Positions 8,184 to 32,431 of a stretch of DNA of 33,539 nucleotides are shown piece by piece (position 1 is the first letter of the stretch; each line of letters starts with the position of its first letter). The stretch spans positions 1-33,539 of the forward strand of contig NZ_FOTF01000032.1 of assembly GCF_900114485.1 (NCBI RefSeq), in the 5' to 3' direction. This DNA comes from Loktanella salsilacus (lineage in GTDB: Bacteria; Pseudomonadota; Alphaproteobacteria; Rhodobacterales; Rhodobacteraceae). The position numbers were made by a program, and so were the translations under genes. The notes under the pieces are model-generated. The model was not told the DNA's origin. It made no database searches and saw only the letters and a list, made by a program, of their open reading frames with translations.

Positions 8184-8217
8184 AATAAGTCCCCGCTCGT
8201 TGCTTCTTTAGGTCAGT

Positions 8218-8261
8218 AAAAAAGGGCTGCGTTACCCGAAATACCTTCGGGTAACGCAGCC
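8218..8261 (-). terminator. Intra-operon hairpin between dctP and dctQ
   Basis: A perfect 16-bp stem (8225-8240 with 8246-8261, five-base loop) lies 18 bases after the dctP stop. Read on the minus strand it is followed by six T (8223-8218), so it has the form of an intrinsic terminator. As dctQM lie directly beyond it, it probably acts as a partial terminator and 3' mRNA stabiliser, giving excess binding protein over permease, as is common for periplasmic-binding-protein operons. The plus-strand side also has T-rich sequence. Confidence 0.85.
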
Positions 8262-8278
8262 TTCATGTTTTTTCGGGA

Positions 8279-15333: not shown

Positions 15334-16083
15334 ATGAGGAATACCGGCGAGAAATCTGCTTTTACAGCGGGCAGCACGCGCATTGGAATCGCAGGGTCGA
15401 TTAAAAATACTAACGAAACCAACGATGAAGCAAAACGCGACCGCGTTGACATTCTGATACTGGATAACAGCTCTGGTATGTGTGCCGTGCTCGCCCGTCA
15501 TCTATCAGAGCTTTTCAAACTGCGCTGCATTTCGTGCGCGCACGGCGATTCGCCAATCTTAGAGACTTTGGCGAGGTACCAACCAAAAATCCTTATCTTG
15601 GACCCCGCAGAGCTAACTCTTAGCCCTCAGCACGACTTGCAGGACTTCAGGCGAAGCGTACGAATCATCTCGGCCCGGACAATGCTTTTTGGATATACGG
15701 CCAGGATGGACGATGCCGTATTGCGCGGCGTTATCGGCGCACAATTTGTTGGCTGTGTCGGCAAGCAGTCGGACCTTCAGCAGTTGGAGATTGGATTGAT
15801 GGCTGTCCAATCAGGCGGCATGTATTTCGATCCTGGATATGGAAACCTGCTTCATGAGGTCGTCGCGCAAGACAGCTTGGGTAGCAACGATTTGCTAAGC
15901 AAGCGGGAGCGCGCGGTCATTATTTTGACCGCCAAAGGGCAGCCCGCAAAGCAGATTGCGCAGGAACTGCAAATCAGCGCAAAGACAGTCGAAACCTACA
16001 AAGGCAGGGCGCTGAACAAGCTGGGTCTAAGCAACCGTGCAGAGCTGCTTGATCACGCACTTTCACAAGGCTGGCTCGCCTAA
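15334..16083 (+). CDS. LuxR/FixJ-type response regulator next to the alginate-type cluster
   Basis: A 249-residue protein with an N-terminal receiver-like domain and a C-terminal LuxR HTH (LSKRERAVIILTAKGQPAKQ, then KTVETYKGRALNKLGL). The receiver keeps an acidic residue after the first strand (ILILDN), a candidate phosphorylation Asp (ILILDPAEL) and a Lys after strand five (GCVGKQ), but its surroundings are divergent, so it may be only weakly phosphorylatable. I chose ATG 15334, preceded by GGGAG at seven bases, over an in-frame TTG at 15310. It is transcribed toward algD but separated from it by an intrinsic terminator. Its position makes it the leading candidate regulator of the cluster. 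No partner histidine kinase is in the window. Confidence 0.85.
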   Translation: MRNTGEKSAFTAGSTRIGIAGSIKNTNETNDEAKRDRVDILILDNSSGMCAVLARHLSELFKLRCISCAHGDSPILETLARYQPKILILDPAELTLSPQHDLQDFRRSVRIISARTMLFGYTARMDDAVLRGVIGAQFVGCVGKQSDLQQLEIGLMAVQSGGMYFDPGYGNLLHEVVAQDSLGSNDLLSKRERAVIILTAKGQPAKQIAQELQISAKTVETYKGRALNKLGLSNRAELLDHALSQGWLA

Positions 16084-16107
16084 ATCCAACTGCATTATTA
16101 TAAAATT

Positions 16108-16150
16108 GCGGCGCTGCAGCGAATAGCTTCAGCGCCGCTTTTCATTTTTT
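16108..16150 (+). terminator. Intrinsic terminator after the LuxR-type regulator
   Basis: GCGGCGCTG (16108-16116) pairs perfectly with CAGCGCCGC (16130-16138), followed by TTTTCATTTTTT. It ends the regulator transcript before the algD promoter, so the cluster has its own promoter. Confidence 0.9.
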
Positions 16151-16193
16151 AAACGCCTGTAATAAATAACAAAATACGGCCAATAGTAATTTA

Positions 16194-16209
16194 CCTTACA
16201 CGTGTAAGG
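16194..16209. promoter_or_regulatory. Perfect 16-bp palindrome upstream of algD
   Basis: CCTTACACGTGTAAGG is fully symmetric and lies 79 bases before the algD start, between the upstream terminator and the gene. Its length and symmetry suit a dimeric HTH regulator such as the LuxR-type protein encoded just upstream. Binding by that protein is inference. I did not see a second copy elsewhere in the window. Confidence 0.6.
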
Positions 16210-16288
16210 ATGTTTCCGACTACCTGTTTTTTCTGCAGCGCGGCACGCTGACCTTAGAAGTTCAAATATTGAAACGAGAGGGATTTTC

Positions 16289-17608
16289 ATGGCGCGCATT
16301 AGCATATTTGGTATTGGCTACGTCGGGGTCGTTGCGGCTGCTTGTCTTGCGCAAGACGGGCATGACGTAATCGCCGTCGATGTGGATCAGGGCAAGATTG
16401 ACGCGATTAACGCCGCGAAGTCTCCGATCGTCGAAAAGGGGCTTGGCCCTCTTGTCAAAAAGGTCGTTGAGGCAGGCAAACTTTGTGCAACATCAGACGT
16501 TGAATGGGCCATCAACAACACCGAGGCGTCGTTCGTCTGCGTTGGCACCCCCTCTGCCGAAGACGGCTCAGTTGGGCTGATTTATGTAACGTCCGTGTGC
16601 GAAGCCATCGGCGCGGCGCTGGCCAAAAAAGACGCTTTCCATTCGGTGATCATCCGGTCGACAATCGTACCGGGTTCTTGCGAAGGCACCTGCATTCCGA
16701 CGCTCGAGGCGGCGTCAGGCAAGGTCGCAGGCCAAGGCTTCGGCGTTGGTTACTACCCCGAGTTCCTGCGGGAATCGACGGCCATCGAAGACTACTATGA
16801 TCCCGGTCTGATCGTTTTCGGATCGATGGACCGCCCCACCGAATCCATTCTGACAGAACTGAATGTATCGCTGGATTGCAAAATCCATTCGGTGGATTTG
16901 CGGACCGCCGAGATGGTAAAGTACACGTCAAACACATGGCGCGCGGTCAAGGTGACCTTTGCCAACGAAATCGGCAACATTGCAAAGTCCTGCGGACTTG
17001 ATGGTCAAACAGTGATGGAAATCCTGTGTTCTGACCTAAAGGTTAACATATCGCCTTACTTTATGCGCCCCGGCTTTGCGTTTGGCGGATCCTGCCTGCC
17101 CAAAGATGTCCGCGCCCTGCGTCACCTTGCCAAGGCAAATGGCGTCGACGCACAGGTTCTAAACGCAGTGCTAGAGGCAAATTCAGCGCAGATCACGCGT
17201 GCAGAGACGATGGTCGAACACTCTCAGGCGCGCAAGGTCGGCATGATTGGTGTCAGTTTTAAGCCCGGCACCGACGACATGCGGGAAAGCCCACTCGCCG
17301 AGTTGGCCGGTCGGCTTATCAGCTCCGGTATCGGTGTAGAGATTTACGATCCATTCGTGTTCGAGGCTTATTCGGAAGCGAACTCTACCGCTGGCCGCGG
17401 CAACGATGCTGTTCCCGATTTACAGAGCCGTCTGGTTGGTGACCTCGACACGCTGATCGCAAGTTCCGATGCGATCATCGTCGGAAACATCTACAAGGAA
17501 ACCCTGCCCGAACTGAACGAAGCTGCGCTGACCACCCCGATCATCGACCTTGCCCGGCTGGACCGGTCAAAGGTGTCCGGCGGCAGTTACGCCGGCATCT
17601 GCTGGTAA
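16289..17608 (+). CDS. algD: GDP-mannose 6-dehydrogenase
   Basis: A 439-residue cytosolic enzyme that oxidises GDP-mannose twice with NAD+ to give GDP-mannuronic acid, the committed step of alginate synthesis. It begins RISIFGIGYVGVV (Rossmann), and has PEFLRESTAIEDY, AEMVKYTSNTWRAVKVTFAN with Lys211, and GFAFGGSCLPKDVRAL with the catalytic Cys269. It ends in GICW exactly as the Pseudomonas enzyme does (436 residues), which favours AlgD over UDP-glucose dehydrogenase. GAGAGGGA lies seven bases upstream of the ATG. It heads a run of twelve co-directional genes with its own promoter region containing the 16-bp palindrome. Confidence 0.95.
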   Translation: MARISIFGIGYVGVVAAACLAQDGHDVIAVDVDQGKIDAINAAKSPIVEKGLGPLVKKVVEAGKLCATSDVEWAINNTEASFVCVGTPSAEDGSVGLIYVTSVCEAIGAALAKKDAFHSVIIRSTIVPGSCEGTCIPTLEAASGKVAGQGFGVGYYPEFLRESTAIEDYYDPGLIVFGSMDRPTESILTELNVSLDCKIHSVDLRTAEMVKYTSNTWRAVKVTFANEIGNIAKSCGLDGQTVMEILCSDLKVNISPYFMRPGFAFGGSCLPKDVRALRHLAKANGVDAQVLNAVLEANSAQITRAETMVEHSQARKVGMIGVSFKPGTDDMRESPLAELAGRLISSGIGVEIYDPFVFEAYSEANSTAGRGNDAVPDLQSRLVGDLDTLIASSDAIIVGNIYKETLPELNEAALTTPIIDLARLDRSKVSGGSYAGICW

Positions 17609-17620
17609 GGGGCCGGTCAC

Positions 17621-19090
17621 GTGCTGGGACATCTCGCCTACCTTTCGACGATCATCATTTTGGCATCCATGGCATCGTCAAACATGCTTGGTCAGGCCAA
17701 AGAGGCGGCAATGGTGGTCGGTGCTCTTGGCCTGTGGCGCTATAGCTGGGCGGCGATCAACTACACGCGCGCCATCTGGTTTCGGCGCGTCGCCCACCCG
17801 CGGCGGCGCGCCCGTGCAGAACAGCGGTTCGCCAAAGCAGGCACACCGTCGCGCGCGTTCTTTCTTGTGACATCATACAAGATCGAACCCGAGGTCACGA
17901 TGCCGGTCTACCGATCGGTATTTAAGGCCGCTGAAATCGCACGGGACGGCGCAACGATCGTGGCCTCTGTTGTTGATGGGTCAGACGAAAGGCTCATTCG
18001 CCAGCTTTTCGCAGCCAGCCGCATTTGCAATCCAGACGCAGATGTCGAACTGATCCTAGACCGCATTCCCGGCACCGGGAAACGGGACGCCCTTGCCCGA
18101 AGCCTTCAGTTGATAGCGCGGCAGGCGCCGACGGCGCATGATATTGTCATCTTCGTCGATGGCGATAGCTGCGTGCCTCAGGATTTGGTGGCACGGGCCG
18201 CGCCGGTCTTTACCGATCCCAAGGTTGGCGCTTTGACGACCGATGAAGCTGTCGACATCCCCAAGCCAGGCTTATTCCGCGACTGGTTCAGCCTTCGCTT
18301 TGACCAACGGCAGGTCATGATGTGCTCTATGGGGCTGTCAAAAAGAGTTCTCACTCTGACAGGGCGCATGTCCGTCTTTCGGGCCAGCCTGGCGACGGAC
18401 CCCGACTTTATATCCATGGTCCAGTCCGATTTCATCGAGCACTGGCGCCTTGGCAGGGTCAACTTTCTAACAGGCGACGACAAATCGACATGGTTTTGGT
18501 TGATGCGTGAGGGCTACCAGATGATTTACCTGCCCGACGTGCAATCATTGTCCGCCGAAACGCAGCCCAAGCCAGGGTTTTTCGACAGCGCTTCAGTGCT
18601 CATGGTGCGCTGGTTCGGAAATATGATGCGGACCAACGGCCGCGCGCTGCAACTGCCGCCATCGCGCATCGGCTATTTTACTTGGTGGTCGATCCTTGAT
18701 CAGCGCGTGTCGATCTGGACGACTCTCTCTGGTCCAATCCTCGCCTTGACCGCTGCCCTGATCTTCGACCTGTCCGTTTTGCCCGCCTACATCGCATGGG
18801 TCATGCTGACGCGCTACTTCTTCGTCTGGGCGATCACGCTATTTCGCGGTCGTGCAGGGTTTCCAATCACTTACCCCTTCCTGCTTTATTTCGGTCAATT
18901 GTTTGGCGCATTGGTTAAAAGCTACGTTTGTTTCCGGCTCGACCGCCAGCGTTGGACGCGTCAATCCAGCAGCAGCGGCCCCCGCCCAAGCTTTGCGCAG
19001 CGCGTCAGTGCCGCCGGTTCGTTACACATGCACGCCCTGACAATTGGTTGGCTGACACTTGGGCTATTCTGGTTCGCCGGGATGTTTTGA
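17621..19090 (+). CDS. alg8: Alginate-type polymerase, glycosyltransferase family 2
   Basis: A 489-residue inner-membrane processive glycosyltransferase that polymerises mannuronate from GDP-mannuronate. N-terminal membrane segments precede the GT2 domain with IVIFVDGDSC (Asp180/Asp182 metal and nucleotide binding) and TGDDKSTWF (284-292), the acceptor-site motif of Alg8. C-terminal membrane segments follow LFRGRAGFPITYP-type sequence. Pseudomonas Alg8 is 494 residues. The start is GTG with AAGGGG upstream, 12 bases after algD. Catalytic residues appear intact, so polymerisation should be functional. It works with Alg44, encoded next. Confidence 0.93.
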   Translation: MLGHLAYLSTIIILASMASSNMLGQAKEAAMVVGALGLWRYSWAAINYTRAIWFRRVAHPRRRARAEQRFAKAGTPSRAFFLVTSYKIEPEVTMPVYRSVFKAAEIARDGATIVASVVDGSDERLIRQLFAASRICNPDADVELILDRIPGTGKRDALARSLQLIARQAPTAHDIVIFVDGDSCVPQDLVARAAPVFTDPKVGALTTDEAVDIPKPGLFRDWFSLRFDQRQVMMCSMGLSKRVLTLTGRMSVFRASLATDPDFISMVQSDFIEHWRLGRVNFLTGDDKSTWFWLMREGYQMIYLPDVQSLSAETQPKPGFFDSASVLMVRWFGNMMRTNGRALQLPPSRIGYFTWWSILDQRVSIWTTLSGPILALTAALIFDLSVLPAYIAWVMLTRYFFVWAITLFRGRAGFPITYPFLLYFGQLFGALVKSYVCFRLDRQRWTRQSSSSGPRPSFAQRVSAAGSLHMHALTIGWLTLGLFWFAGMF

Positions 19091-19106
19091 TCCGCCCCTA
19101 TTCGTC

Positions 19107-19127
19107 AAAGATCCGATCTTTTTCTTA
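19107..19127 (+). terminator. Weak terminator-like hairpin between alg8 and alg44
   Basis: AAAGAT and ATCTTT flank CCG, followed by TTCTT. The stem is only six base pairs and AT-rich. If it works at all it would lower expression of the genes from alg44 on relative to algD-alg8. It may be chance. Confidence 0.3.
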
Positions 19128-19167
19128 AAACCCAATTACGCCCCATTTTTTCAAAAGGAGCATCACG

Positions 19168-20211
19168 ATGTCCGACGCTCAGACCAACGTTCCAGAGCTG
19201 CCGCCAAATTTTGCATACGAAGGCGAACATCCTCAAGTCCGTCTTCCGTTCGCGATCATCTTAGAAGGGCGCAAACTAAAAGGCGAAAGCCTGTCCGTGA
19301 CCCGCGCTGTTGCGACCGGCCTTGTCAATCCAAACCTTGATGGTCACCAAGTCGTAGCAACCCTACGGTTTGACCTTGAAGGGTTCACAGTCAGCTTTCC
19401 GGTGGACGTTGTCGTCGGCGTCGCCGACCGCTCCGAGGATGCCGAGGTCATTTTCGTTTTTGCGAACCCGACCGGGCAGCACCTTCCTGCCATGCGCTAT
19501 CTTCTGAACAGCTTTATCGCTGGTGACGTCGTGTCGATCGCTGGGATGCTATCCTACACCGGCCCGATAAAGATGAAGGCCGCCAGTGCAGAGGGGCAGC
19601 CCGGCGCTATCCAACGGCTCGGCCGCATTGGGCGCAAGGCGGTTGTTTTGGCCCTGACCGCTGGTCTGGTATTTCTGGCCGCCGGAGTGATCAGCGAACG
19701 CGTCATTTACGCGTACGAGCCGCGTCCGGTTCAGGTCGTCCAAGAAGGGCAGCTTTTGCGCGCGACTGCGGCCGGCCAAATTTCTTATGTGGACGCTCAA
19801 GCTGCCGAAGGCGACGTCGTCTACTCAATCCTCGCCAATTCCGGCGATCTATTAAGCGTCCGGATGCCTTGCGACTGCGATGTCACGCCAAGCGATGCTT
19901 TTGTCATCGGTGCCACCGTCCTGCCGGGCGCAGCGCTGGTTCAGCTAACGACCGACGACACCCGCGTCACCGCCACCACCGAAATCACATTCGAGGGGAC
20001 CGCGCGTCTTCTTAATGGCGATCACGCTGAACTGGTCCTGACGGATGGGCGCGTGGTCCCCGTCACACTTGAATTGTTACCGGTCGAAAATGCCAACTCT
20101 GACATGCAGCCGGTAACAGTCGTCCTTCCTGAAGACATTTCAGTCGCACCAGGAACCCCCGCGCGCCTGCGGTTTCAGCGTCAGCTGCTGCCGGACCAAT
20201 TTCAACTTTAG
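19168..20211 (+). CDS. alg44: Alg44-like co-polymerase with degenerate PilZ domain
   Basis: A 347-residue protein with a cytosolic PilZ-like domain (about residues 17-130), one membrane segment (157-175) and a periplasmic HlyD/MFP-like domain carrying the PCDCDV motif that Pseudomonas Alg44 (389 residues) also has. In known Alg44 proteins c-di-GMP binds to RxxxR and D/NxSxxG and is needed for polymerisation. Here the first motif region reads YEGEHPQVRLP, with Gly19 and Gln23 in the Arg positions, and the second reads TRAVATG, with Arg46 and Val48 in place of Asp and Ser. So c-di-GMP binding by the canonical site looks lost. AAGGAG lies upstream of the ATG, 77 bases after alg8. Confidence 0.88.
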   Translation: MSDAQTNVPELPPNFAYEGEHPQVRLPFAIILEGRKLKGESLSVTRAVATGLVNPNLDGHQVVATLRFDLEGFTVSFPVDVVVGVADRSEDAEVIFVFANPTGQHLPAMRYLLNSFIAGDVVSIAGMLSYTGPIKMKAASAEGQPGAIQRLGRIGRKAVVLALTAGLVFLAAGVISERVIYAYEPRPVQVVQEGQLLRATAAGQISYVDAQAAEGDVVYSILANSGDLLSVRMPCDCDVTPSDAFVIGATVLPGAALVQLTTDDTRVTATTEITFEGTARLLNGDHAELVLTDGRVVPVTLELLPVENANSDMQPVTVVLPEDISVAPGTPARLRFQRQLLPDQFQL

Positions 20212-20323
20212 CAAACACCAACACGCATTAAGCACGGAACCACATTTAAGACCGCCTGAATTTTCAAGTGATCCTTCACCTAAACCTCCCGCGTCTTGAT
20301 GGCGCCGATATTTGGAGATCGAG

Positions 20324-21736
20324 ATGTCTAAGATCGTCCCAGTCATTCTTTGCGGAGGCAGCGGAACGCGCCTCTGGCCTATGTCCCGCAGCCAAAGCCC
20401 AAAGCAATTTCACCCCGTTGACGGACCCGGTTCGCTCAGCTTCTTTCAAACAACGGTTCAACGGCACCGCTCTGGAATATACGACGCGCCAATCGTCGTC
20501 ACATCCGTCACCCATCTGACGACCGTGCGCCGCCAGCTTGCAGAATTGCAGTGTTCTGCAACGATCATCGCAGAACCCGTGGCCCGCAACACAGGCCCAG
20601 CGGTTTTGGCAGCAGCGTTAAAAATCGCACAAACTGATCCAAAATCGTTGATGCTCGTCCTGCCGTCCGACCACGTCATTTCTGGTGATATGGACGGCGT
20701 GATTTCTGGGCCGGTGCAGGCAGCCCACGACGGGCGCATCGTCCTTTTCGGCATCACCCCCACCTACCCCGAAACGGGTTATGGATATATCGTCGATGGC
20801 GGCGCTTTTGCGACCCATCCGGGCCTTCGGCGGGTTGCACACTTTGTCGAAAAACCACCCCTCAAGCAGGCGACTGCGTTGGTCGCAACGGGCGATGCCT
20901 TTTGGGCATCAGGCATTTCGCTGTTCGCTGCCGAAACGATTATCAGTGAAATGCGCCGATGTGATCGCAAGACCTATGACGCCGTCGTGACATCCTGCGA
21001 AAAAGGGGAAAAACGCACCGGAGAGCTGCATTTGAACACGGACGCATTGCGCCGTGCCCGCAGCGAGCCCACCGAGCGCATCGTCTTTGAGAACTCTGAA
21101 CGCGTCGTCCTATGTCCCGCAAATTTAGTCTGGAATGACGTCGGATCATGGACCTCGATCCACGGTATCGGTAGACCTGACGCCCAAGGAAACGTCTTTC
21201 ATGGGGATGTCATCGCGACAGATACCGAAGGCGCACTTGTCCACTCGCAAGATCGCCTTGTCGCGCTCGTCGGTGTTCCGGGCGTCATCGTCATCGACAC
21301 ACCTGACGCCCTTCTGGTGACGCAGCGCGGTCGGTGCCAAGACGTCAAAAAAATTGTCGAAACCTTGCGCAAAGAGGAACGCGTCGAGGCAAGCCGCCAC
21401 CGGCGCCGCGAACATGCGTGGGGTCAGTCGAGCAATTTGATGCGGTCCGGTGCCTTCGACATGTCCATTCTTCGCCTGTACGCCGGAAATACACTGGAAA
21501 TCGACCCGCTTCCGGGGCGCCGCCTAATCATGGTGGAAGGCAACGTCGACATGTTCGATGGATTGCAGCGGCGCAAACTGTCGCCCGGCGAACACGCCAC
21601 ATTGGACACTCAGGTGCTTAGCAGAGTGACGAACTTCAGCGACAAAACCGCCGAGGTGCTGCTGATGACGATGAATTCGTCAATCATGGCGGGCCCAGCC
21701 AAGTCCTTTGCCCAGGTACCGACACATGTCTCGTGA
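20324..21736 (+). CDS. algA: Mannose-1-phosphate guanylyltransferase with degenerate PMI domain
   Basis: A 470-residue AlgA/ManC-type protein that makes GDP-mannose from mannose-1-phosphate and GTP. The N-terminal nucleotidyltransferase domain has CGGSGTRLWPMSR, PKQF, ARNTGPA, LPSDHVI, FVEKPP and WNDVGSW. Two usually conserved spots differ: WASGI where WNSGM is usual, and ERIVFE where DYAVME is usual. The C-terminal cupin, which in bifunctional AlgA is a phosphomannose isomerase, lacks the QMHHHRAEHW metal-binding motif; the aligned segment is LEIDPLPGRRLIMVEG. Isomerase activity is thus unlikely. I chose the ATG at 20324 with GGAG six bases upstream rather than an in-frame TTG at 20312. Confidence 0.9.
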   Translation: MSKIVPVILCGGSGTRLWPMSRSQSPKQFHPVDGPGSLSFFQTTVQRHRSGIYDAPIVVTSVTHLTTVRRQLAELQCSATIIAEPVARNTGPAVLAAALKIAQTDPKSLMLVLPSDHVISGDMDGVISGPVQAAHDGRIVLFGITPTYPETGYGYIVDGGAFATHPGLRRVAHFVEKPPLKQATALVATGDAFWASGISLFAAETIISEMRRCDRKTYDAVVTSCEKGEKRTGELHLNTDALRRARSEPTERIVFENSERVVLCPANLVWNDVGSWTSIHGIGRPDAQGNVFHGDVIATDTEGALVHSQDRLVALVGVPGVIVIDTPDALLVTQRGRCQDVKKIVETLRKEERVEASRHRRREHAWGQSSNLMRSGAFDMSILRLYAGNTLEIDPLPGRRLIMVEGNVDMFDGLQRRKLSPGEHATLDTQVLSRVTNFSDKTAEVLLMTMNSSIMAGPAKSFAQVPTHVS

Positions 21737-23198
21737 TTTGCGGTCTTCATCGGCATTCAGGGCCAGTCTGTTACTGGCTTCGGCTTGCTTGGCCCCAAGC
21801 GGGATCTTGGCCGAACCCGTTGAACAGATCCTGTCCCAAGCGCGGGCCGACTATGAAGATCACGCAATACAAGTTGCTGGCATTGTCTCGCCGGAACAAA
21901 TGCTGGCGCGTGCGGGTCACGCGCTGGCAGCACCGCCCCCGCAGGCCGCAGCCCCTTCGGCAGAATTCGACTTAATCGACCTTCGGTTTATTCTGATCGA
22001 AATGGCCCGCGCCACCGGGACAAACGACCAACTGTCGGTCCTGCGCGCGCAGCCGCAAGGGCGCCTCAAGGCTCTCTCAATCCAAAAAGGCGATGCGGAC
22101 TTATCGACTGTCATCAAGACGGCCACCGATATGGGGTTCTATGGCGCGGATGGTTTGACCATTCCATTGGTCATTCAAGCCGGCGCCCGTTTGACGATCG
22201 CAGATACGCTCATGCTCGACCGCGCCAGCGGAGCCTTTTTGATTAATTTCGGTCGCATGGAGGTCGTCGGCGGTAGCATTATTGGGACGGGGACGGAAAA
22301 CGCGAACATCCCCGAATTTCGTCCCTTTTTCACCACGCTCGGCACCGGGAGCTTCGACGTTCGGGGCGCCGTCATCCAATCGTTAGGGTTTGGCAGCGCG
22401 CCAGCCTTTTCGGGTTTTGCTGCAATCGAAGCGGGGCTGTATCGCCCCGAAGACGTGTCATCGATCCAAGACACGTTGCTGCGCGATGTTATGTCGACCC
22501 AATTCGACGGGCTGCAGTCACCTAAGATTGTCGGATCAATTTTTGACCATAGCAGTGGCAATGCCCTTGAACTACGTCAGACACAAAATGCACAGGTTTC
22601 GCAAAATCTGTTTATCAATTCCGGCGGCGATGCTTTGCGTATTACGCACGGTTCTGTCGGAACGCGCGTCAACGACATTGAAATATATGAAGCCGGATTA
22701 AACGGCATCCGCGTTAATATCTCTAGCCATGCGACCCGCCTAGATGACGTAACGATTTGGAATGCGGCTAAGATCGGCCTGTCCGTAGATCGGTCCGATT
22801 GCGTTGCGATCAGTCACGTGTCAGTCCTGTTCCCCGGTCAAAAAGGCGTTTCCCTGCGGCGTACACGCGCAACCCAATTGACGGACAGCAGCGTCTTGGG
22901 ATCGCGCAACGCTGGCCTATTCGTAGCAGAACAGCCCGACGGAACAGTTCTGACACTTGCGCGAAACCGCATCGCCGGAAACCGTGTGGGCATTTCAACT
23001 GCAGCCCCTGCCGAAATCCATTTGGACGCTAATGACTTTTCCCAGCAGTTTCCGCGTTTCCTGAAAGGCGATCTATCAGGCAGCATCGCGACCCTCACTG
23101 CCAACCTCACAGGCTCCGCCCCGCTCGTTTTGCAAGCCGGCGGAACCGATCCGAACCTCGTGCCACCCATCACCTGCACCCAAGCAGAGGAGAGCTGA
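21726..23198 (+). CDS. algG: AlgG-like right-handed beta-helix protein lacking the epimerase motif
   Basis: A 490-residue periplasmic protein with a signal peptide (SLLLASACLAPSGILA) and a long parallel beta-helix built of repeats such as NALELRQTQNAQVSQNLFIN and NGIRVNISSHATRLDDVTIW. By operon position, length (Pseudomonas AlgG about 540) and fold it corresponds to AlgG, the mannuronan C5-epimerase. However, the DPHD motif that carries the catalytic residues is absent; the matching turn reads GNALELRQ. It may retain only a scaffold role in the periplasmic export complex, or epimerise by other residues. The ATG at 21726 overlaps the algA stop by 11 bases; an in-frame TTG at 21708 is less likely. 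Confidence 0.75.
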   Translation: MSRDLRSSSAFRASLLLASACLAPSGILAEPVEQILSQARADYEDHAIQVAGIVSPEQMLARAGHALAAPPPQAAAPSAEFDLIDLRFILIEMARATGTNDQLSVLRAQPQGRLKALSIQKGDADLSTVIKTATDMGFYGADGLTIPLVIQAGARLTIADTLMLDRASGAFLINFGRMEVVGGSIIGTGTENANIPEFRPFFTTLGTGSFDVRGAVIQSLGFGSAPAFSGFAAIEAGLYRPEDVSSIQDTLLRDVMSTQFDGLQSPKIVGSIFDHSSGNALELRQTQNAQVSQNLFINSGGDALRITHGSVGTRVNDIEIYEAGLNGIRVNISSHATRLDDVTIWNAAKIGLSVDRSDCVAISHVSVLFPGQKGVSLRRTRATQLTDSSVLGSRNAGLFVAEQPDGTVLTLARNRIAGNRVGISTAAPAEIHLDANDFSQQFPRFLKGDLSGSIATLTANLTGSAPLVLQAGGTDPNLVPPITCTQAEES

Positions 23199-23202
23199 GA
23201 CC

Positions 23203-24651: not shown

Positions 24652-24659
24652 GGTTAGAC

Positions 24660-25730: not shown

Positions 25731-26554
25731 TCGGTCGTCACTGTAGTGGATTGGGTGCCGTGGCCTTCGGCTTGGTTTTCCTGACCGCCGCGCCCGCACT
25801 TTGCGAAACTAATGCTCTGCTCAGCGGCTTTACGGCTGTTGATCAGGATGCGCCGCAGGTTTCGGTTGTTATGGTAACGGGCATCACACGGTCTGACCAA
25901 TTGCCGCCGACGCTTGTGCAAGCACGCAAGGCGTTATCCGCCAACGTCGCCTTGCGGGATTCCACCCTGCGCGATCTTGCTGACCTGATGGATGGCAATG
26001 CCGCGTTTCAGTACGCCAAACGGCTGGATTTCGTGGCGAAACCAGGGCTGGCGGCACATGCAGCGCACTATTACGGGATCGCGGCCGCGACCGGCCGTGG
26101 CGGCGCGATTTATGGCTTCATCAAAGCATTAGACGCGCTTGACCCGGCGACGACCACGCCCGGACGGCTGGCTAACTTACGGAATATTCTTGTCACATAT
26201 GCGAACGCAGGCAGTGCGCCAGCGTTAGAGGCGGTACTGCGCTACCACGCTCGAAACACCCCATTCACAGATATGCGCGCAGAGCTGGACCGGATCCTAG
26301 TTGAAACCGATGGGCCAGCTGCACATGCCGTGGCCCTGCAGCTGGCATCAGAGATATTACATTCAGATAGCCCGACGCCTGCCGAGCTACAAAAAGCCCG
26401 CCAATATCTTCTGCGCGCCGAAGACTCGGACAGCCTTCGCACACGGCTCATCTCGCAAAATTTGCTGCCGCTCGTCGAAGCGCGGGTCGTGGCGCTGCGA
26501 CCCGATCAAAGCTTTGCACTTCAAGTCGACACACAAGGGGAGATCACACCGTGA
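25727..26554 (+). CDS. Unrecognised periplasmic helical protein inside the cluster
   Basis: A 275-residue protein that I do not recognise and that has no counterpart in the Pseudomonas or Azotobacter alginate operon. It has a signal peptide (AVAFGLVFLTAAPALC) ending AALCE, so it should be periplasmic. The Cys near residue 24 lacks a convincing lipobox. The mature part is rich in Ala and Leu helices (LAAHAAHYYGIAAATGRGGA, AGSAPALEAVLRYHAR, AELQKARQYLLRAED) resembling TPR or Sel1-type helical repeats, so a scaffold role beside AlgK or AlgX is plausible. It is coupled on both sides: ATGA with algJ and GTGA with algX. Such tight coupling argues for a stoichiometric role in acetylation or export. 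Confidence 0.8.
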   Translation: MIGRHCSGLGAVAFGLVFLTAAPALCETNALLSGFTAVDQDAPQVSVVMVTGITRSDQLPPTLVQARKALSANVALRDSTLRDLADLMDGNAAFQYAKRLDFVAKPGLAAHAAHYYGIAAATGRGGAIYGFIKALDALDPATTTPGRLANLRNILVTYANAGSAPALEAVLRYHARNTPFTDMRAELDRILVETDGPAAHAVALQLASEILHSDSPTPAELQKARQYLLRAEDSDSLRTRLISQNLLPLVEARVVALRPDQSFALQVDTQGEITP

Positions 26555-27912
26555 GACACCGGATGAGACTGACTTGCGCCACGATAGCAATGTGTAGCGT
26601 TTTCACAGCGACCAGCCTTCATGCGCAAAGCGCGTTTGGCTGTTCTGGCCTTGAAGACAACCGAGAGCTTCCTGCGATTGAAGGAAAGCACGGCGTTTTC
26701 TATCGCATCAATACCGATATCAGGATGAATCATCCGTTTTCTGCAGCAATTGTTAATCACTTAGCTGAGTTGTCTCGCGCGCTGGAAAGTCGCGGAACAA
26801 CGCTTGTCTTTGCTCCGATCCCAACAAAAAGCGTCTCGATGCCCGGCGACCTGCCTGACCAGGCGCGTCTGTATGGGTTCGACCTAAATGTCGCGACCGC
26901 CGTTCATGACGATGTGTTGGACCGCCTGACGGCTGCGGGCGTTCTGACCGTCGATATCCGTCAAGCGCTGCTAAAGGCAGAGCCGGGCAAATTGCCGTTT
27001 TTCAACTCTGATTTTCACTGGTCCGCCTATGGTGCCAACCTCGGTGCCGCTGCGATTGCTGATGTGATCAAGGCGCATCCGTTTTATGAAACGCTTCCTG
27101 TCACCCAGTTCACAACCGAACCGGTGGCCGAAGAGACGGCATTTTCCGGCATGCGGCGCGTGTTGCAGACACGTTGCACCGTTACCTTGCCAGAGCCCAT
27201 CACGATGACGTGGAACACCCAGCCTGTTGGCAATGACAGTGGCCTCGATATCGGGCTCGGCGACAGTGCTGACGCCGGCATCGATATTTTCGGGCAGACC
27301 GCCGATACAATTCCAATCGTGCTCGTGGGCACATCATTCTCTGACAGCCCCATCAACAATTTCCCGAACTGGATTGCACAGCATACCAGCCTAGAGGTCG
27401 TGAATTTTGCGATTACCGGGGGCAACCAGTACGGGGCGATTACGTCCTATCTGACATCGGCTGAATTCCAAGAGGCGCCGCCGGCATTCTTGGTTTGGGA
27501 AAATCCAATCTACAACAATCTGGCGCAATACGGCGACCAGCCCCTGCGCGAATTGATTGGGGCAGCCGCAAACAACTGCGCGGCAGAGCGTCCTGTTGCG
27601 ATTGCAAAGGACCGCCTGTCAGTCACCGCAGATGTCAGCGGGCTGGACGCATCGGACACACTCTTCCTTGATACGGGTGGCAGTACGGCGCACGAAGTGG
27701 ATTACACCTTCGTCTCTGCCAACGGCGGCGAACGCCTTAAGGCACTGCGCCGCGGGGAACGCCTGCGCCGGACCGGTCGGTTTTACATGCCGATGACCGG
27801 ACTTTGGCCCGATGGCGCGCAGCAGGTGCGCATTGATCTGTCCGCGCCCTTTGGCGCCGACGCGCGACTCTACGTCTGTCACCCGTTGCCACATCAAGAG
27901 GAAAAATCATGA
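26551..27912 (+). CDS. algX: AlgX-like periplasmic acetyltransferase
   Basis: A 453-residue secreted protein (signal peptide ending TSLHAQ) with an SGNH-like catalytic domain and a C-terminal carbohydrate-binding module, as in Pseudomonas AlgX (474 residues). The triad is present: Asp154 and His156 in NSDFHWSAYGA and Ser262 in VGTSFSDS. Other matches to AlgX are VVNFAITGGNQYGAITSYL and PPAFLVWENP. AlgX binds the polymer and performs the final O-acetyl transfer. The start is GTG at 26551, overlapping the previous stop (GTGA), with GGGGAG upstream. Its stop overlaps the algF start as ATGA. Confidence 0.92.
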   Translation: MRHRMRLTCATIAMCSVFTATSLHAQSAFGCSGLEDNRELPAIEGKHGVFYRINTDIRMNHPFSAAIVNHLAELSRALESRGTTLVFAPIPTKSVSMPGDLPDQARLYGFDLNVATAVHDDVLDRLTAAGVLTVDIRQALLKAEPGKLPFFNSDFHWSAYGANLGAAAIADVIKAHPFYETLPVTQFTTEPVAEETAFSGMRRVLQTRCTVTLPEPITMTWNTQPVGNDSGLDIGLGDSADAGIDIFGQTADTIPIVLVGTSFSDSPINNFPNWIAQHTSLEVVNFAITGGNQYGAITSYLTSAEFQEAPPAFLVWENPIYNNLAQYGDQPLRELIGAAANNCAAERPVAIAKDRLSVTADVSGLDASDTLFLDTGGSTAHEVDYTFVSANGGERLKALRRGERLRRTGRFYMPMTGLWPDGAQQVRIDLSAPFGADARLYVCHPLPHQEEKS

Positions 27913-28556
27913 TGAGCTTTAGATCTGTATTCATGGCAATAGCCCTGCCCGCCGCGGCCGCCCTTATCGCAAGTGTGCCCGGTACCGCGCGATCAGCCGA
28001 CGATGCGCTTTATGAGGATGTCTACGATCCTAATTCTAGCTTTATTCGCGTGCTCGCGCCCGCCGAAGCCTTTGCAACAATCGACGGCAAAACGGTCCGG
28101 GATTTTCACGCTGGCCTGTCCGACTATGTCAACGTGATGCCGGGCACAGTTGCCGTTATGCTGTCTGGGCAAAGCATCGATATCCCTGTCGCGCCGTCCA
28201 AACACTATACGATCGTCAGCCTAAACGGCACCGATCCAGACGTCATCGAGGACATGCTCGCCTTGAGCCCCGCAAAAGCAGATGTCAGCTTTTATAACCT
28301 CACCGAAGTCTCGGGCATCGACTTGTATGTGCCGCTGGCCAACGCCGTCGCGATCGAAAGCGTCGATGCAGCGCATACGAAATCCGTCGCGCTCAAGGCA
28401 CCTTTGACGCTCGATTTCGACCTGCGCAGTGGTGAAGAGGAACTCGCAAACGTCGATGCGGTCGATTTGAAACGCAAAGGGGGTGTCACAATCGTCCTAA
28501 GCGAAGAAGGCGGTAGTTTCTCAGCATCAGCCGTCCCCAACACGTATTTTAAATAA
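27909..28556 (+). CDS. algF: Alginate O-acetylation protein AlgF
   Basis: A 215-residue periplasmic protein (Pseudomonas AlgF is 216) with a signal peptide ending TARSA and a mature start DDALYEDVYDPNSSFIRVLA, matching the AlgF pattern ALYG...SSFVRVYNA. It has two beta-rich domains and no catalytic motif. In known systems it links AlgI/AlgJ with AlgX during O-acetylation and is required for it. It is coupled to algX through an ATGA overlap. It does not depart obviously from the family. Confidence 0.9.
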   Translation: MMSFRSVFMAIALPAAAALIASVPGTARSADDALYEDVYDPNSSFIRVLAPAEAFATIDGKTVRDFHAGLSDYVNVMPGTVAVMLSGQSIDIPVAPSKHYTIVSLNGTDPDVIEDMLALSPAKADVSFYNLTEVSGIDLYVPLANAVAIESVDAAHTKSVALKAPLTLDFDLRSGEEELANVDAVDLKRKGGVTIVLSEEGGSFSASAVPNTYFK

Positions 28557-28581
28557 AGCTAAAAATTCGGGAGCCGCAGCC

Positions 28582-31359
28582 ATGATCTGTAATTATGTTA
28601 AAAGACTAACTCTATCTGTTCCCTGCGGTCTGGCGTTGAGTTTGGCAGCCGTTAATCCGTTGGCTGCGCAGGATGGGGCCAGGCTCGACTTTCGCTTTGA
28701 GCCGCCAAACATCCAGATCGAACCGATCTGCACAGCGCGGCCCCCGGATGAAGACACGATCCGCTTATGGGGCGCATGGGACGGCGGCGCGCTGCCCGAT
28801 ATGGATAGCACCCTGATTAGACGGGACATCAATCGTCTTATGCATCTTGATGGCGTGCGATGGTACGAAAAATCAATGCAAATGATTGATCGACTAGAGG
28901 CACGCAATCCATCGTTTGGTGGCCAGAATGCCTTGATGTCACGCATTGCCGCGATGGAAGTGGCGGGGCGTTTTGAAACGCTCACGAAGGCACAGCTTGT
29001 GCCCGAACTTGCCGCCTACGGGGATGCACTTTCCCCGCGCGCCCGCACCGCGTTGGCCCGCTATTACCGCGATGGCATCGGTGTGCCCCGCGATGAAGCC
29101 CGTTCCGATACGCTGCTGATTTCTGCGGGCTACGCAGGGAATGCAGACGCGTTGCTGACGCTGTCGGGGATGGTTTTAAACGGCACTGCACCCCAAGAAT
29201 GGGACGTCCCATTGGAACTTGCGGTCAGCATGGCATTCGGATCGCTTGTCGGTGAATTGAACCCGACCATCTGCGATCGCACTGCACGCATTGCTCGAGA
29301 GTATCACTCGGGCGAAATTGTCCAAAAAGACCCGCAACTAGCGCATGATTGGTTCCGCTTTACAGCCGATTTAGGGAATGCCTATTCCGCTTGGAAAGTT
29401 GTGGAATACCACCTCGAAGCCGAAGGCTTCGCGCGGGACAATGCGACCTTGCTGAAATACCTCAACATGGCCTCTGATGCCGGTCTTCCTTATGCGCAGA
29501 TAGAGCTTGGCCGTCTTTACGAGGTCGGTGCACTCGTTGAGCCAGACCTCGACAAAGCCCTTTCACTTTACGAACAAGCGGCAAGCAACGGCGAACGGCC
29601 CGGCCTGACACGCATTGCGCTTTTCCTTGAACGCTACGCGCTTGAGTATCCGAGCCAGCAGTCCCGGCGTGTCGATGCGCTCGACGCGCTGACCAAACTT
29701 CAGGACCCACCGGGATGGGCATTCACCCGGCTGTCAGAACTGGTGCTGGAAACCGAAGGCCGCTGGGCCGGCACAGAAAATGCCCGTCAGTTGCTAGAGC
29801 GTGCGGTTGAACTTGGCGATCTGGATGGAACGATCAGTTTGGCAAATCTAATCCTCGCACAGGCATCAGACCCATCCGATTTTGACCAGGCTGTGAACCT
29901 GCTTGCAAAAGCTGTGTCGGTAAACGGTGGAATAAGCCCGTTGAAGACACTCTTTTCGGCTTACACCTGCCGTGCAGTTGACGCGCCCCGCCTTGCCGAG
30001 GCGCAGCATTGGCAGGCCCTTGAACAAGCGACTGCCACAGCCAACATCGACCTATCGGCACATGAGGTCATCGCGCTGTCGCCAGACAACGATCCCCTGA
30101 CCCTGGCTGCTTTGCAGTCCCATGCCTTGTATGGACGCCCATCAGCTTTGGCGAGTTGGCTAAAGCTACTGGAATACGCGGGCTTCGCCGATGCTGAAAT
30201 GCAAGACTTCTGGACAGACTATTCCGACCGCTACTCTCTCGTGCTGAACGCGCTTGCAAAGCTGGAATTCGAGCTTGCCGAGAACCGAGAACAACGTCTC
30301 GCGGCATTTGGCCTTCTGCGCGAAGAATACAAGCGGTCTGGTCCTTCGGCTGCGCTTACACTGGCAGAGGCACTGCTTGATAGCCGCACACAAATTGATC
30401 CCACAGCGGCCGCGCAGGCGCAGGGTGAAGCGGTGACATTGCTGACCGAAATCGCAAAACTGGGCTACGGTAAAGCCATCCAGCTTATCGCAGGCTTCGC
30501 AAAAGACGATGACGGTCGCCGCGCTGTCTTTGATACTTACCGGGATATCATCGAAGTCGATGGCGATTTTTCAGCGCTATTGTTCGCCATTCCCTACGTC
30601 ACCGGCCCAGACCGAGAGCGCATGATGCAAAGAGCGCGCGGCATCATGCCATGCGACTATAAGAACGCCATGCTGATGGCAGGCGTAACCCGCCAAGTCG
30701 GGGACCGCGACGGCACGGGACACTGGCTCGATGTCGCACAGACATTGATGGAAGATAACACATGGGCCATCACCGACCTCGCAAAGGCACGTTACGATCT
30801 CGAAGGTCCCTCCGGCGCCACGCTTGCCGCTGACATGTTCGAACGCTCCTACGCGTTGGGCGACGATACCGCCGGACGAGAGCTATTTGAGCTGCGTGTG
30901 TCCCCCGAACTGGCAACCTTTTCACCTGACAAGGCTGTCGATCTGATAGCGGATGCAGTGGTCACCGAACGGATTCCGCTTTTGGCGGGCTATCTTGGAC
31001 GCTATCGCAAGGCCGATGATGCAACGCAAAGTTCGATCGCTAAAACGCTCGACATCCCTGAACTTTACCGCGTCGCCGCAAGCGGCGGGGACGTGTATTC
31101 CATGCGCAGTTACGGTCAGTATTTGATGGCCAATGCAACGGGACCGGCCGATCTGACATCGGCCACAGACTGGCTGCGCCAAGCGGCCGAATGGGGCGAC
31201 GCGACCGCGATGGCGGACTACGGTGAAGCGCTCGCCTTTGGGATCGGGGTTCCAGCAGATCCAGTACAGGCAACCGTCTGGTTAGAGCGCGCCTCTGACG
31301 GCGGAAGCCATAAAGCGGGCGAAATCACGCGTCTGATCCGACTAAGCCGAGGAGGCTAA
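28582..31359 (+). CDS. algK: Very large AlgK-like Sel1/TPR-repeat protein
   Basis: A 925-residue secreted helical-repeat protein, about twice the size of Pseudomonas AlgK (475). Sel1-like repeats are clear near residues 145-190 (ALARYYRDGIGVPRDEA), 235-345 (YAQIELGRLYEVGALVEPDL, DKALSLYEQAASNGE) and at the C-terminus (TDWLRQAAEWGDATAMADYG, AFGIGVPADPVQATVWLERA). The long middle region is more diverged TPR-like helix. The signal peptide ends at about LAAQ. The Cys at residue 15 does not sit in a canonical lipobox, so unlike AlgK it may not be a lipoprotein. AlgK scaffolds the periplasmic complex and docks on the AlgE porin, which is missing here. GGGAG lies upstream of the ATG. Confidence 0.8.
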   Translation: MICNYVKRLTLSVPCGLALSLAAVNPLAAQDGARLDFRFEPPNIQIEPICTARPPDEDTIRLWGAWDGGALPDMDSTLIRRDINRLMHLDGVRWYEKSMQMIDRLEARNPSFGGQNALMSRIAAMEVAGRFETLTKAQLVPELAAYGDALSPRARTALARYYRDGIGVPRDEARSDTLLISAGYAGNADALLTLSGMVLNGTAPQEWDVPLELAVSMAFGSLVGELNPTICDRTARIAREYHSGEIVQKDPQLAHDWFRFTADLGNAYSAWKVVEYHLEAEGFARDNATLLKYLNMASDAGLPYAQIELGRLYEVGALVEPDLDKALSLYEQAASNGERPGLTRIALFLERYALEYPSQQSRRVDALDALTKLQDPPGWAFTRLSELVLETEGRWAGTENARQLLERAVELGDLDGTISLANLILAQASDPSDFDQAVNLLAKAVSVNGGISPLKTLFSAYTCRAVDAPRLAEAQHWQALEQATATANIDLSAHEVIALSPDNDPLTLAALQSHALYGRPSALASWLKLLEYAGFADAEMQDFWTDYSDRYSLVLNALAKLEFELAENREQRLAAFGLLREEYKRSGPSAALTLAEALLDSRTQIDPTAAAQAQGEAVTLLTEIAKLGYGKAIQLIAGFAKDDDGRRAVFDTYRDIIEVDGDFSALLFAIPYVTGPDRERMMQRARGIMPCDYKNAMLMAGVTRQVGDRDGTGHWLDVAQTLMEDNTWAITDLAKARYDLEGPSGATLAADMFERSYALGDDTAGRELFELRVSPELATFSPDKAVDLIADAVVTERIPLLAGYLGRYRKADDATQSSIAKTLDIPELYRVAASGGDVYSMRSYGQYLMANATGPADLTSATDWLRQAAEWGDATAMADYGEALAFGIGVPADPVQATVWLERASDGGSHKAGEITRLIRLSRGG

Positions 31360-31363
31360 CGCC

Positions 31364-32431
31364 ATGGCACAGAAGTTTTCAAGAACACGCACGCCCAGCG
31401 GACTGCCCGCACTCGCGCTTGGCGTCATGCTTGGCAGCGCTGGCACGATGACTGCGACCCCGGCCTTCGCGGTTGACGCCGAATGCGCTGCAGCGCCAGA
31501 GCCCGTAATAAGTCTAAATTACGGAAGCCGCTACACCGACGATGACGACACGCGATCAACGCTGGACGTCGACAGTAATGAAGTGGTTAACGCGGCATTG
31601 CGCCCCGTCGACGACTTTATCCGCGACCTTGTTGCCCGCTCCAATGGCGTGTTGAACGAAAGCGACCCAACCTCTGCCAGTGGTGCAGCCGACTGCGTGC
31701 TTGCACAAATTGCGACTTGGGCGCGTGCGGAAGCGCTTTCGGATCTGGATAGCTTCACAGCACGCCTGTCGATGGGCGCACGCATTGGCGCAATTGCCGA
31801 GGCGTATCGCCAAGTCCGGCCGCTTATCACAGACCTAAAGGCGGTCGCGGACGTGGACCAATGGCTGATCCAGCGGGCCCAAGAACAGTTAGAGTTTTGG
31901 GAAAAAGAAGCAACATCAGGGGCAAGGACGGGAAACCTTCGCGCCTGGGCCGCGCTCGCACTGCTTAATATCGGCGAAGTGACAAACACCGACACGTTCG
32001 TCTGGTGGGCAAGCGCGTCTGCCGTGCGCATTCTATGTACAGCCCGCGAGGATGGCAGCCTACCGCAGGAAACAAAGCGCGGATCATATGGGCTGCACTA
32101 CCAATTCCATGCCCTGTCCCCGCTTGTCACCATCGCGGCGCGCCTTGACCGTGCCGGTCTGCCCATGACCACCAGTTGCAACAATGCCCTGCCCCGCGTT
32201 GTGGAATATGCCTTCAACGACTTCGAACAAGAAGGTGCACTGACACAAGAATATAGCGGCGCGCGTCAAAGCTACTTTGACGGGACCGAGACCCTGGAGG
32301 ACCACGAGCTTGCGTTTCTGGGAGCTTATGTGTCGCTGTTTCCCAATTCCCCTTTGGTTGATCGCGCGCAAAAGACGGAAAATCTGTCTAACTCAAAGCT
32401 TGGTGGTGACCAGCGGTTGTTGTGGCAGTAG
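31364..32431 (+). CDS. algL: AlgL-like (PL5) protein with altered catalytic residues
   Basis: A 355-residue periplasmic protein with a signal peptide ending ATPAFAV and the alpha/alpha-barrel pattern of PL5 alginate lyases (Pseudomonas AlgL 367 residues). Matching landmarks are LNYGSRYTDDDDTRSTLD, ATWARAEAL, TGNLRAWAALALLN and QETKRGSYGLHYQFHALSPL. Hand alignment shows Asn191, Arg239 and Tyr246 kept, but the catalytic His (PaAlgL His202) is Leu192 and the active-site Lys (PaAlgL Lys66) is Arg56. Lyase activity is therefore doubtful. AlgL normally clears stray polymer from the periplasm and contributes to the export complex. GAGGAGG overlaps the algK end. It is the last gene of the run, and no strong terminator follows. 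Confidence 0.85.
   Translation: MAQKFSRTRTPSGLPALALGVMLGSAGTMTATPAFAVDAECAAAPEPVISLNYGSRYTDDDDTRSTLDVDSNEVVNAALRPVDDFIRDLVARSNGVLNESDPTSASGAADCVLAQIATWARAEALSDLDSFTARLSMGARIGAIAEAYRQVRPLITDLKAVADVDQWLIQRAQEQLEFWEKEATSGARTGNLRAWAALALLNIGEVTNTDTFVWWASASAVRILCTAREDGSLPQETKRGSYGLHYQFHALSPLVTIAARLDRAGLPMTTSCNNALPRVVEYAFNDFEQEGALTQEYSGARQSYFDGTETLEDHELAFLGAYVSLFPNSPLVDRAQKTENLSNSKLGGDQRLLWQ

What the first reader, a model, noticed from the sequence alone, without database searches (positions are those of the whole stretch)
15334..32431. Complete-looking alginate-type cluster in an alphaproteobacterium with a new gene order
Twelve co-directional genes match algD, alg8, alg44, algA, algG, algI, algJ, an unknown, algX, algF, algK and algL. 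Well-characterised alginate operons are from Pseudomonas and Azotobacter with order D-8-44-K-E-G-X-L-I-J-F-A. Here algA follows alg44, algI and algJ precede algX and algF, algK and algL are last, and algE is missing. I do not know of a characterised version in Rhodobacterales.
Basis: partly seen in the sequence, partly recalled or inferred. Interest (0 to 1): 0.88.

Follow-up and report, generated by a model that had tools for sequence, protein, structure and literature searches.

The report
Variant alginate-type polymer cluster in alphaproteobacteria
A bacterium, probably of the genus Loktanella, carries genes for making and exporting a polymer like seaweed alginate; they belong to an alphaproteobacterial lineage that has lost the usual control switch, the usual sugar-editing active site and the usual export pore, so it probably makes a simpler polymer that leaves by an unknown route.

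Summary
The cluster is real. A LuxR-type regulator and algD-8-44-A-G-I-J-unknown-X-F-K-L lie co-directionally at 15310-32431, near-identical to two Loktanella salsilacus plasmid copies. Profiles grown from this lineage find the genes of seven reference Pseudomonas-type operons, algK only weakly and nothing at algE. The order is not peculiar to this strain: 43 of 72 spanning Rhodobacterales/Rhizobiales loci share it. Alg44 lacks the c-di-GMP-binding PilZ motifs (0 of 83; references 7 of 7). AlgG lacks DPHD (0 of 78; 7 of 7). AlgL has Leu for the active-site His (27 of 27 aligned rows). AlgA lacks its isomerase domain, AlgK is a long Sel1 protein, and no AlgE was found in the genome. AlgX keeps Asp-His-Ser in 46 of 46 spanning loci with algI/J/F and has lost the His in 26 of 26 without. 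Most likely product: O-acetylated polymannuronate, not gated by c-di-GMP at the synthase, leaving by an unidentified pore. New variant of a known kind; an Allorhizobium plasmid alginate cluster is already mentioned in print. Chemistry untested.

The parts
15334..16083 (+). LuxR-type response-regulator gene, likely local transcriptional regulator (ORF opens at TTG 15310)
   Evidence: PF00196 GerE E 6.5e-18; near-identical plasmid copy annotated 'response regulator transcription factor'; such a gene within 2.5 kb upstream of algD in 36 of 43 spanning type-A loci (6 without, 1 no room), in 0 of 26 type-B (1 no room) and 0 of 3 type-C
16289..17608 (+). algD, GDP-mannose 6-dehydrogenase
   Evidence: 1mfz residues 3-439, E 2.1e-125, 422 bits against 239 for the next best chain, a UDP-glucose dehydrogenase; GGSCLPKD kept in all aligned rows
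17621..19090 (+). alg8, GT2 polymerase
   Evidence: 43% identity to a reference Alg8 over 454 aa, E 3e-125; DGD[ST] in all aligned rows
19168..20211 (+). alg44-like copolymerase, PilZ-like N-terminus without the c-di-GMP-binding motifs
   Evidence: no Pfam hit even at E 1, while one reference and two other alphaproteobacterial Alg44 hit PilZ and HlyD; lineage profile hits the Alg44 PilZ structure 4xrn at E 0.0016, behind 5nen (E 3e-5, another part of the profile); 25% identity to reference Alg44, E 6e-7; motifs absent
20324..21736 (+). algA, mannose-1-phosphate guanylyltransferase without the C-terminal isomerase (cupin) domain (ORF opens at TTG 20312)
   Evidence: NTP_transferase + ManC beta-helix only, while reference AlgA also has MannoseP_isomer PF01050; isomerase motif 0 of 79 against 7 of 7 references
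21726..23198 (+). algG-like periplasmic beta-helix protein without DPHD, probably a scaffold (ORF opens at TTG 21708)
   Evidence: lineage profile hits AlgG structures 4ozz/4nk8 at E about 1e-38; DPHD 0 of 78; no invariant His/Asp/Arg/Tyr in 25 aligned rows
23203..24651 (+). algI, MBOAT acetyl-transfer membrane protein
   Evidence: PF03062 E 2.6e-32; 50% identity to reference AlgI; both WH motifs kept in the window
24660..25730 (+). algJ, SGNH O-acetyltransferase
   Evidence: PF16822 E 4e-53; DTHW and GTSYS kept
25727..26554 (+). lineage-specific periplasmic protein (the 'unknown'); signal peptide by eye; possibly distantly TPR/Sel1-like
   Evidence: found in 70 of 72 spanning loci; hhalign to reference AlgK only 20% probability
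26563..27912 (+). algX, SGNH O-acetyltransferase with intact triad (ORF opens at GTG 26551)
   Evidence: AlgX 4knc E 6e-26 over 48-447; D-H-S kept
27909..28556 (+). algF
   Evidence: PF11182 E 1.8e-11
28582..31359 (+). long Sel1-repeat protein in the place of algK; signal peptide by eye, no lipobox by a simple pattern
   Evidence: PF08238 Sel1 E 1e-25; lineage profile hits many Sel1 structures and, more weakly, AlgK 7ula E 3e-7; lipobox pattern
31364..32431 (+). algL-like PL5-family lyase with NLRAW where the references have NH[SN]YW
   Evidence: PF05426 E 4e-16; 4ozw E 1.9e-22; His replaced by Leu, Arg249 and Tyr256 equivalents kept

Best explanation
A synthase-dependent exopolysaccharide system of the alginate kind. 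AlgA makes GDP-mannose, AlgD oxidises it to GDP-mannuronate, Alg8 with Alg44 polymerises and moves the chain across the inner membrane, AlgG and AlgX hold it in the periplasm, AlgI/J/X/F O-acetylate it, and AlgL clears stray polymer. In this lineage Alg44 no longer binds c-di-GMP, so production is probably set by transcription (the LuxR-type regulator in type-A clusters) and not by allosteric gating. AlgG has become a scaffold, so the product is mostly O-acetylated polymannuronate, not M/G alginate. A long Sel1 protein stands in for AlgK, and export uses a pore encoded elsewhere. Shown: gene content, homology, motif losses and retentions, co-variation of the AlgX triad with the acetylation genes. 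Inferred: product, regulation, scaffold role, export route.
For: Homology of D, 8, 44, A, G, I, J, X, F and L to reference operons. Site changes uniform in the focal lineage, with controls. Alg44: both aligned motifs 0 of 83 and 0 of 30 in a second, partly overlapping set (29 loci and the window), against 8 of 8 other alphaproteobacterial and 4 of 4 reference Alg44 in that alignment and 7 of 7 references. AlgG DPHD: 0 of 78 against 7 of 7 references and 2 of 2 other alphaproteobacteria. AlgL His: Leu in 27 of 27 rows aligned there, 2 more gapped, NL in 30 of 30 loci fetched for algL, against His in 7 of 7 references and 3 of 3 other alphaproteobacteria. The DPHD His probably abstracts the proton (PMC4444821, passages seen). 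AlgX triad kept in 46 of 46 spanning loci with I/J/F, His lost in 26 of 26 without, at least two losses on the Alg8 tree. The genome has 14 GGDEF matches, so c-di-GMP is probably made.
Against: No chemistry. 'AlgK' and the unknown are tied to AlgK only weakly, and no pore was found. One locus left out of the AlgX count because it lacks alg44, L033, has algF but no algI or algJ in the stretch held and still keeps the AlgX triad. In the second Alg44 alignment the Ser of the DxSxxG motif is kept while the Asp and Gly are not. AlgL H202A of P. aeruginosa had no detectable activity in vitro but grew normally in vivo (PMC8829089, passages seen), so His-to-Leu need not mean a dead AlgL. AlgG might epimerise with other residues, or a secreted epimerase encoded elsewhere might add G. 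In a strain related to CCB-MM3 (which carries a type-A cluster) bulk exopolysaccharide was about 96% neutral sugars with a minor acidic part (PMC7892980, passages seen); whether that strain has the cluster is unknown.
Confidence: 0.6

Rival explanations
1. Ordinary alginate (M and G): AlgG still epimerises with a rearranged active site, or a secreted epimerase elsewhere in the genome adds G, and Alg44 binds c-di-GMP in another way.
For: AlgG keeps the beta-helix and about 300 positions of similarity to AlgG structures. Several related clusters have an RTX gene upstream; secreted Azotobacter epimerases combine a beta-helix A-module with Ca2+-binding R-modules (PMC4444821 passages; that these are RTX repeats is recalled, and one search lists epimerase R-modules among the RTX matches).
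Against: No DPHD in 78 of 78 AlgG and no invariant His/Asp/Arg/Tyr over 25 rows; none of the 19 ORFs of the RTX group has DPHD; in the window's own genome 31 matches to one such protein all lie beyond its residue 346, nearly all in the RTX part.
Confidence: 0.2
2. A different uronate or hexose polymer that only borrows alginate-type parts: the changed AlgL and AlgG sites reflect a different substrate.
For: AlgL carries an alternative motif (NLR[AGQ]W in 30 of 30 loci), not random decay; AlgG, AlgL and Alg44 are only 24-25% identical to the references.
Against: AlgD is clearly a GDP-mannose dehydrogenase, with algD and algA both present in 69 of 72 spanning loci; Alg8 is 43% identical to a reference Alg8.
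Confidence: 0.15
3. A decaying cluster without function.
For: Several catalytic motifs are missing; PilZ-motif, isomerase and pore functions are lost.
Against: All genes are open in the window; the order and the losses recur over 72 spanning loci with 72 distinct AlgX sequences; the AlgJ and AlgX sites of the window and the AlgD and Alg8 sites of all rows are kept.
Confidence: 0.05

Closest known systems
Pseudomonas/Azotobacter alginate operon (algD-8-44-K-E-G-X-L-I-J-F-A)
   Same: Homologues of D, 8, 44, G, X, L, I, J, F and A; acetylation sites kept
   Different: Gene order; no AlgE; long Sel1 protein for AlgK; an extra lineage-specific periplasmic protein; PilZ motifs, DPHD, AlgL His and AlgA isomerase domain lost
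'Atypical' alginate operons of Bundalovic-Torma et al. 2020 (PMC7112194, passages seen)
   Same: Rearranged operons that have lost algKE or parts of the modification machinery
   Different: The passages speak of environmental and deep-sea bacteria and do not describe this alphaproteobacterial lineage or its site losses; the supplementary tables were not seen
Alginate cluster on a 407-kb putative plasmid contig cobinned with an Allorhizobium MAG (PMC12368963, passages seen)
   Same: Alphaproteobacterial, plasmid-borne, called an alginate cluster; perhaps the same lineage (not compared here)
   Different: Noted by annotation; no gene order, motif or export analysis in the passages seen
   Same: Alphaproteobacterial alginate-type clusters
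   Different: PilZ motifs and DPHD intact; L164 also has an AlgK-AlgE fusion with Alginate_exp at 110 bits

Membership tests
Bacterial alginate biosynthesis system | AlgD GDP-mannose dehydrogenase | tested here: met
   1mfz, E 2.1e-125 over residues 3-439; site kept
Bacterial alginate biosynthesis system | Alg8 polymerase | tested here: met
   43% identity to a reference Alg8; DGD[ST] in all aligned rows
Bacterial alginate biosynthesis system | Alg44 with c-di-GMP-binding PilZ (RxxxR, [DN]xSxxG; consensus recalled) | tested here: not met
   0 of 83 in aligned columns, one match elsewhere in 84 unaligned sequences; 0 of 30 in a second, partly overlapping set, controls intact
Bacterial alginate biosynthesis system | AlgG C-5 epimerase with DPHD | tested here: not met
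   0 of 78; equivalog NF038177 not hit by the window protein at E<=0.001 but 963 bits for a reference AlgG
Bacterial alginate biosynthesis system | AlgE outer-membrane pore (PF13372) | tested here: not met
   none in own genome at E<=1; over cut-off in 2 of 33 related genomes, at places where no alg profile hits (L107-L109); no hit of one reference AlgE among the focal loci's ORFs by a single-sequence search that also missed the Sel1 proteins, so of limited reach
Bacterial alginate biosynthesis system | AlgK TPR lipoprotein | tested here: inconclusive
   Sel1 protein, 29.9 of 700 bits to the equivalog, hhalign 69% over 84 columns only, no lipobox by pattern
Bacterial alginate biosynthesis system | AlgI/J/F/X O-acetylation with AlgX and AlgJ sites | tested here: met
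Bacterial alginate biosynthesis system | AlgL PL5 lyase with His202/Arg249/Tyr256 | tested here: not met
   fold family met; Arg and Tyr kept, His is Leu
Bacterial alginate biosynthesis system | AlgA bifunctional isomerase/guanylyltransferase | tested here: not met
   guanylyltransferase part only; isomerase motif 0 of 79
Bacterial alginate biosynthesis system | Polymer of mannuronate and guluronate | not testable with these tools
   needs sugar analysis

The most novel reading that the evidence does not exclude
A distinct class of alginate-type machine, spread over Rhodobacterales and Rhizobiales, that makes mannuronate-only polymer, is not gated by c-di-GMP although the cell makes it, uses catalytically dead AlgG (and, in acetylation-free branches, dead AlgX) purely as scaffolds, and exports through a new kind of outer-membrane route built on a 900-residue Sel1 protein.
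Probability: 0.35. Interest if true: 0.75.

Novelty: new variant of a known kind. Interest (0 to 1): 0.6.

Why it matters
In Pseudomonas the scaffold and catalytic roles of AlgG and AlgX sit in the same proteins. Here nature seems to have separated them: AlgX keeps its triad in 46 of 46 spanning loci with the acetylation genes and has lost the His in 26 of 26 without, and AlgG persists without its epimerase motif. The lineage also offers an alginate-type synthase without c-di-GMP-binding motifs in a cell that has GGDEF proteins, and an export step without a recognisable AlgE. It could be a bacterial source of polymannuronate, and it shows that alginate annotations in these orders need re-examination before a product is assumed.

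Tried and rejected
Rejected: that the order is a peculiarity of this strain; that an AlgE of the known family lies elsewhere in the genome; that the missing motifs are alignment artefacts (searched also without alignment: DPHD anywhere 0 of 78; PilZ motif pair anywhere 1 of 84; second, partly overlapping set); that alphaproteobacteria in general lack them (outgroups keep them). That the AlgK-like protein hides a pore: only Sel1 was seen by Pfam and PDB profile; no structure model could be made.

Led nowhere: conserved neighbour genes as a candidate pore (many groups look like shadow frames of alg genes; the clear ones were RTX proteins and ABC transporters); PDB searches with single Alg44, AlgG and Alg8 sequences (nothing useful); literature on alginate in these orders (no characterised system seen in the listings). 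Papers opened, as passages only: PMC7112194, PMC4149021, PMC12368963, PMC4444821, PMC8829089, PMC7892980, PMC4148975; PMC4149021 and PMC4148975 had nothing on alginate synthesis. A simple RTX count found 8 of 44 type-A/C and 0 of 22 type-B loci; the BLAST group holds 19 loci, 18 type A, and includes protease-like members, so I give no firm prevalence.

Limits of counts: loci are not independent. Several rows are near-copies on the tree (for example L056/L057/L089, L050/L052/L062, L060/L087); loss of I/J/F is at least two events, the main type-B clade and L073 (quick method, SH-aLRT only, midpoint root). Left out before counting: L001, L002, L082, L083, L086 (own or same species) and the short reference loci L090-L099. 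Dropped: 12 of 84 loci that do not hold all of alg44, algG, algX and algK (listed; L009, L025, L027 and others are cut contigs and count as 'B' only because algI is out of range). In one search single rows are gapped or misaligned at AlgI, AlgJ and AlgX, and 2 to 4 rows at AlgL. The genome scan kept the best 80 of 202 relatives.

Full report
What is there. The window most likely comes from Loktanella (inferred): two genes tested are near-identical to two L. salsilacus plasmid copies (alg8 99.6-99.8% and alg44 99.1-99.7% protein identity). One of them, NZ_CP072993.1 (597,811 bp), shows the same run of genes, with AlgF and alginate lyase named and the others annotated only generically. Whether the window's own contig is a plasmid was not tested. 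Of eight other same-genus genomes sampled, one has the cluster's alg44. The window's thirteen ORFs are open. There is no tRNA, tmRNA or Rfam match at gathering score in the window.

Identity of the genes. Pfam and PDB searches support AlgD, A, I, J, X, F and L. Profiles grown from the window proteins on 85 loci find algD, 8, 44, A, G, I, J, X, F and L in seven of seven reference operons, the algK place weakly or not at all, and nothing at algE. Identity of the window proteins to them runs from 50% (AlgI) and 48% (AlgD) to about 25% (Alg44, AlgG, AlgL, AlgF). The AlgG profile reaches AlgG structures at E about 1e-38, and the Alg44 profile reaches the Alg44 PilZ domain at E 0.0016. The 'AlgK' is a long Sel1 protein whose special tie to AlgK is weak; the unknown is conserved but unnamed.

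The lineage. Of 84 loci, 72 hold alg44, algG, algX and algK: 43 have D-8-44-A-G-I-J-unk-X-F-K (type A), 26 lack I/J/F (type B, one of them also without the unknown) and 3 lack D and A (type C, one also without the unknown). Most type-A stretches end inside algK; for 30 loci fetched around algL an AlgK-profile ORF lies in the same 4-kb stretch in 30 of 30. The three type-C loci lie in genomes that also hold a type-B cluster (G067, G069, G070). On the Alg8 tree the 83 focal rows form one side of a branch with SH-aLRT 100, against five reference and seven other alphaproteobacterial Alg8. The Alg44 profile is found in 30 of 394 sampled genomes of the family at E<=1e-15, the own genome included, and in 10 of 385 of the class at E<=1e-8: the own genome and nine others, of which eight were looked at and all eight have intact PilZ motifs.

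What changed. (1) Alg44: both PilZ motifs are missing in 83 of 83 aligned rows and in a second, partly overlapping set of 30, and present in 7 of 7 references and 8 of 8 outgroup alphaproteobacteria; in the second alignment the motif's Ser remains. The genome has 14 GGDEF matches. (2) AlgG: no DPHD in 78 of 78; its His probably abstracts the proton in AlgG (PMC4444821, passages). (3) AlgL: His to Leu in 27 of 27 rows aligned there, with Arg249 and Tyr256 equivalents kept in 25 of 25, and NLR[AGQ]W in 30 of 30 loci (the two sets overlap in part). P. aeruginosa H202A had no detectable activity in vitro but grew normally in vivo (PMC8829089, passages), so AlgL may still work. (4) AlgA lacks the isomerase domain. 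(5) No AlgE of the known family in the own genome; two of 33 related genomes have a match over the cut-off, away from alg genes. (6) AlgX: Asp-His-Ser in 46 of 46 spanning loci with I/J/F; His lost in 26 of 26 without, Ser lost in 25 of 26, by at least two independent losses. L033, left out of that count, has algF but no algI or algJ in the stretch held and keeps the triad.

How it probably works. Mannose-1-phosphate to GDP-mannose (AlgA), to GDP-mannuronate (AlgD), polymerisation (Alg8/Alg44), periplasmic passage along AlgG, AlgX, the unknown and the Sel1 protein, O-acetylation (AlgI/J/F/X), clearance (AlgL), and export by an unknown pore. Control in type-A clusters is probably transcriptional: a LuxR-type regulator sits within 2.5 kb upstream of algD in 36 of 43 type-A loci and in none of 26 type-B or 3 type-C loci (one A and one B had no room). 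The steps up to gene identity are shown; product, control and export are inferred.

Compared with the known. Rearranged alginate operons that lost algKE are known (PMC7112194, passages), and an alginate cluster on an Allorhizobium putative plasmid has been mentioned (PMC12368963, passages). In my searches and the passages read I saw no description of this lineage, of its site losses or of a characterised product; the library holds only open-licence papers, and supplements were not readable. It works like an alginate system but fails several tested defining features, so I file it as a variant of the kind, not as a bona fide alginate operon.

Noticed in passing
L164:5965-7935 (unnamed alphaproteobacterial genome G597): A Sel1 (AlgK-like) and Alginate_exp (AlgE) fusion protein in an alginate cluster with intact PilZ, DPHD and NNH motifs.
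   Followed up: partly
L006:5031-7424 (-), L019:5417-7456, L056:4234-7002 and others: RTX proteins, several with a beta-helix-like N-terminal part by eye, lie upstream of many type-A clusters; the layout recalls secreted Azotobacter epimerases, but none of the 19 in the group has DPHD. In the window's genome no match reached the first 346 residues of the L006 protein.
   Followed up: partly
L011, L013, L014: Type-C clusters without algD and algA sit in genomes that also hold a type-B cluster, suggesting precursor supply in trans.
   Followed up: partly
L087:23416-24756 (Tateyamaria omphalii plasmid pDOK1-4-5): algX is split over several frames and not annotated there; real break or sequencing error not told apart.
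   Followed up: no
L140:4071-19025 (NZ_CP072993.1 150070-165024): A 15-kb 'hypothetical protein' gene lies beyond algL and an IS3 transposase on the L. salsilacus plasmid.
   Followed up: no
window 12798-14306 (-): A 502-aa ORF matching fatty-acid hydroxylase and phospholipid methyltransferase; beside the same LysR and regulator genes the plasmid copy has only a 795-bp methyltransferase CDS annotated.
   Followed up: no
window 5174-9337 (-): TRAP transporter (DctM, DctP) with a GlcNAc 2-epimerase-family gene, a likely sugar-acid uptake unit.
   Followed up: no
L033: Metagenome-assembled Cognatishimia locus with algD-8-X-F-K-L and a luxR gene, no alg44, algI or algJ seen, AlgX triad intact.
   Followed up: no
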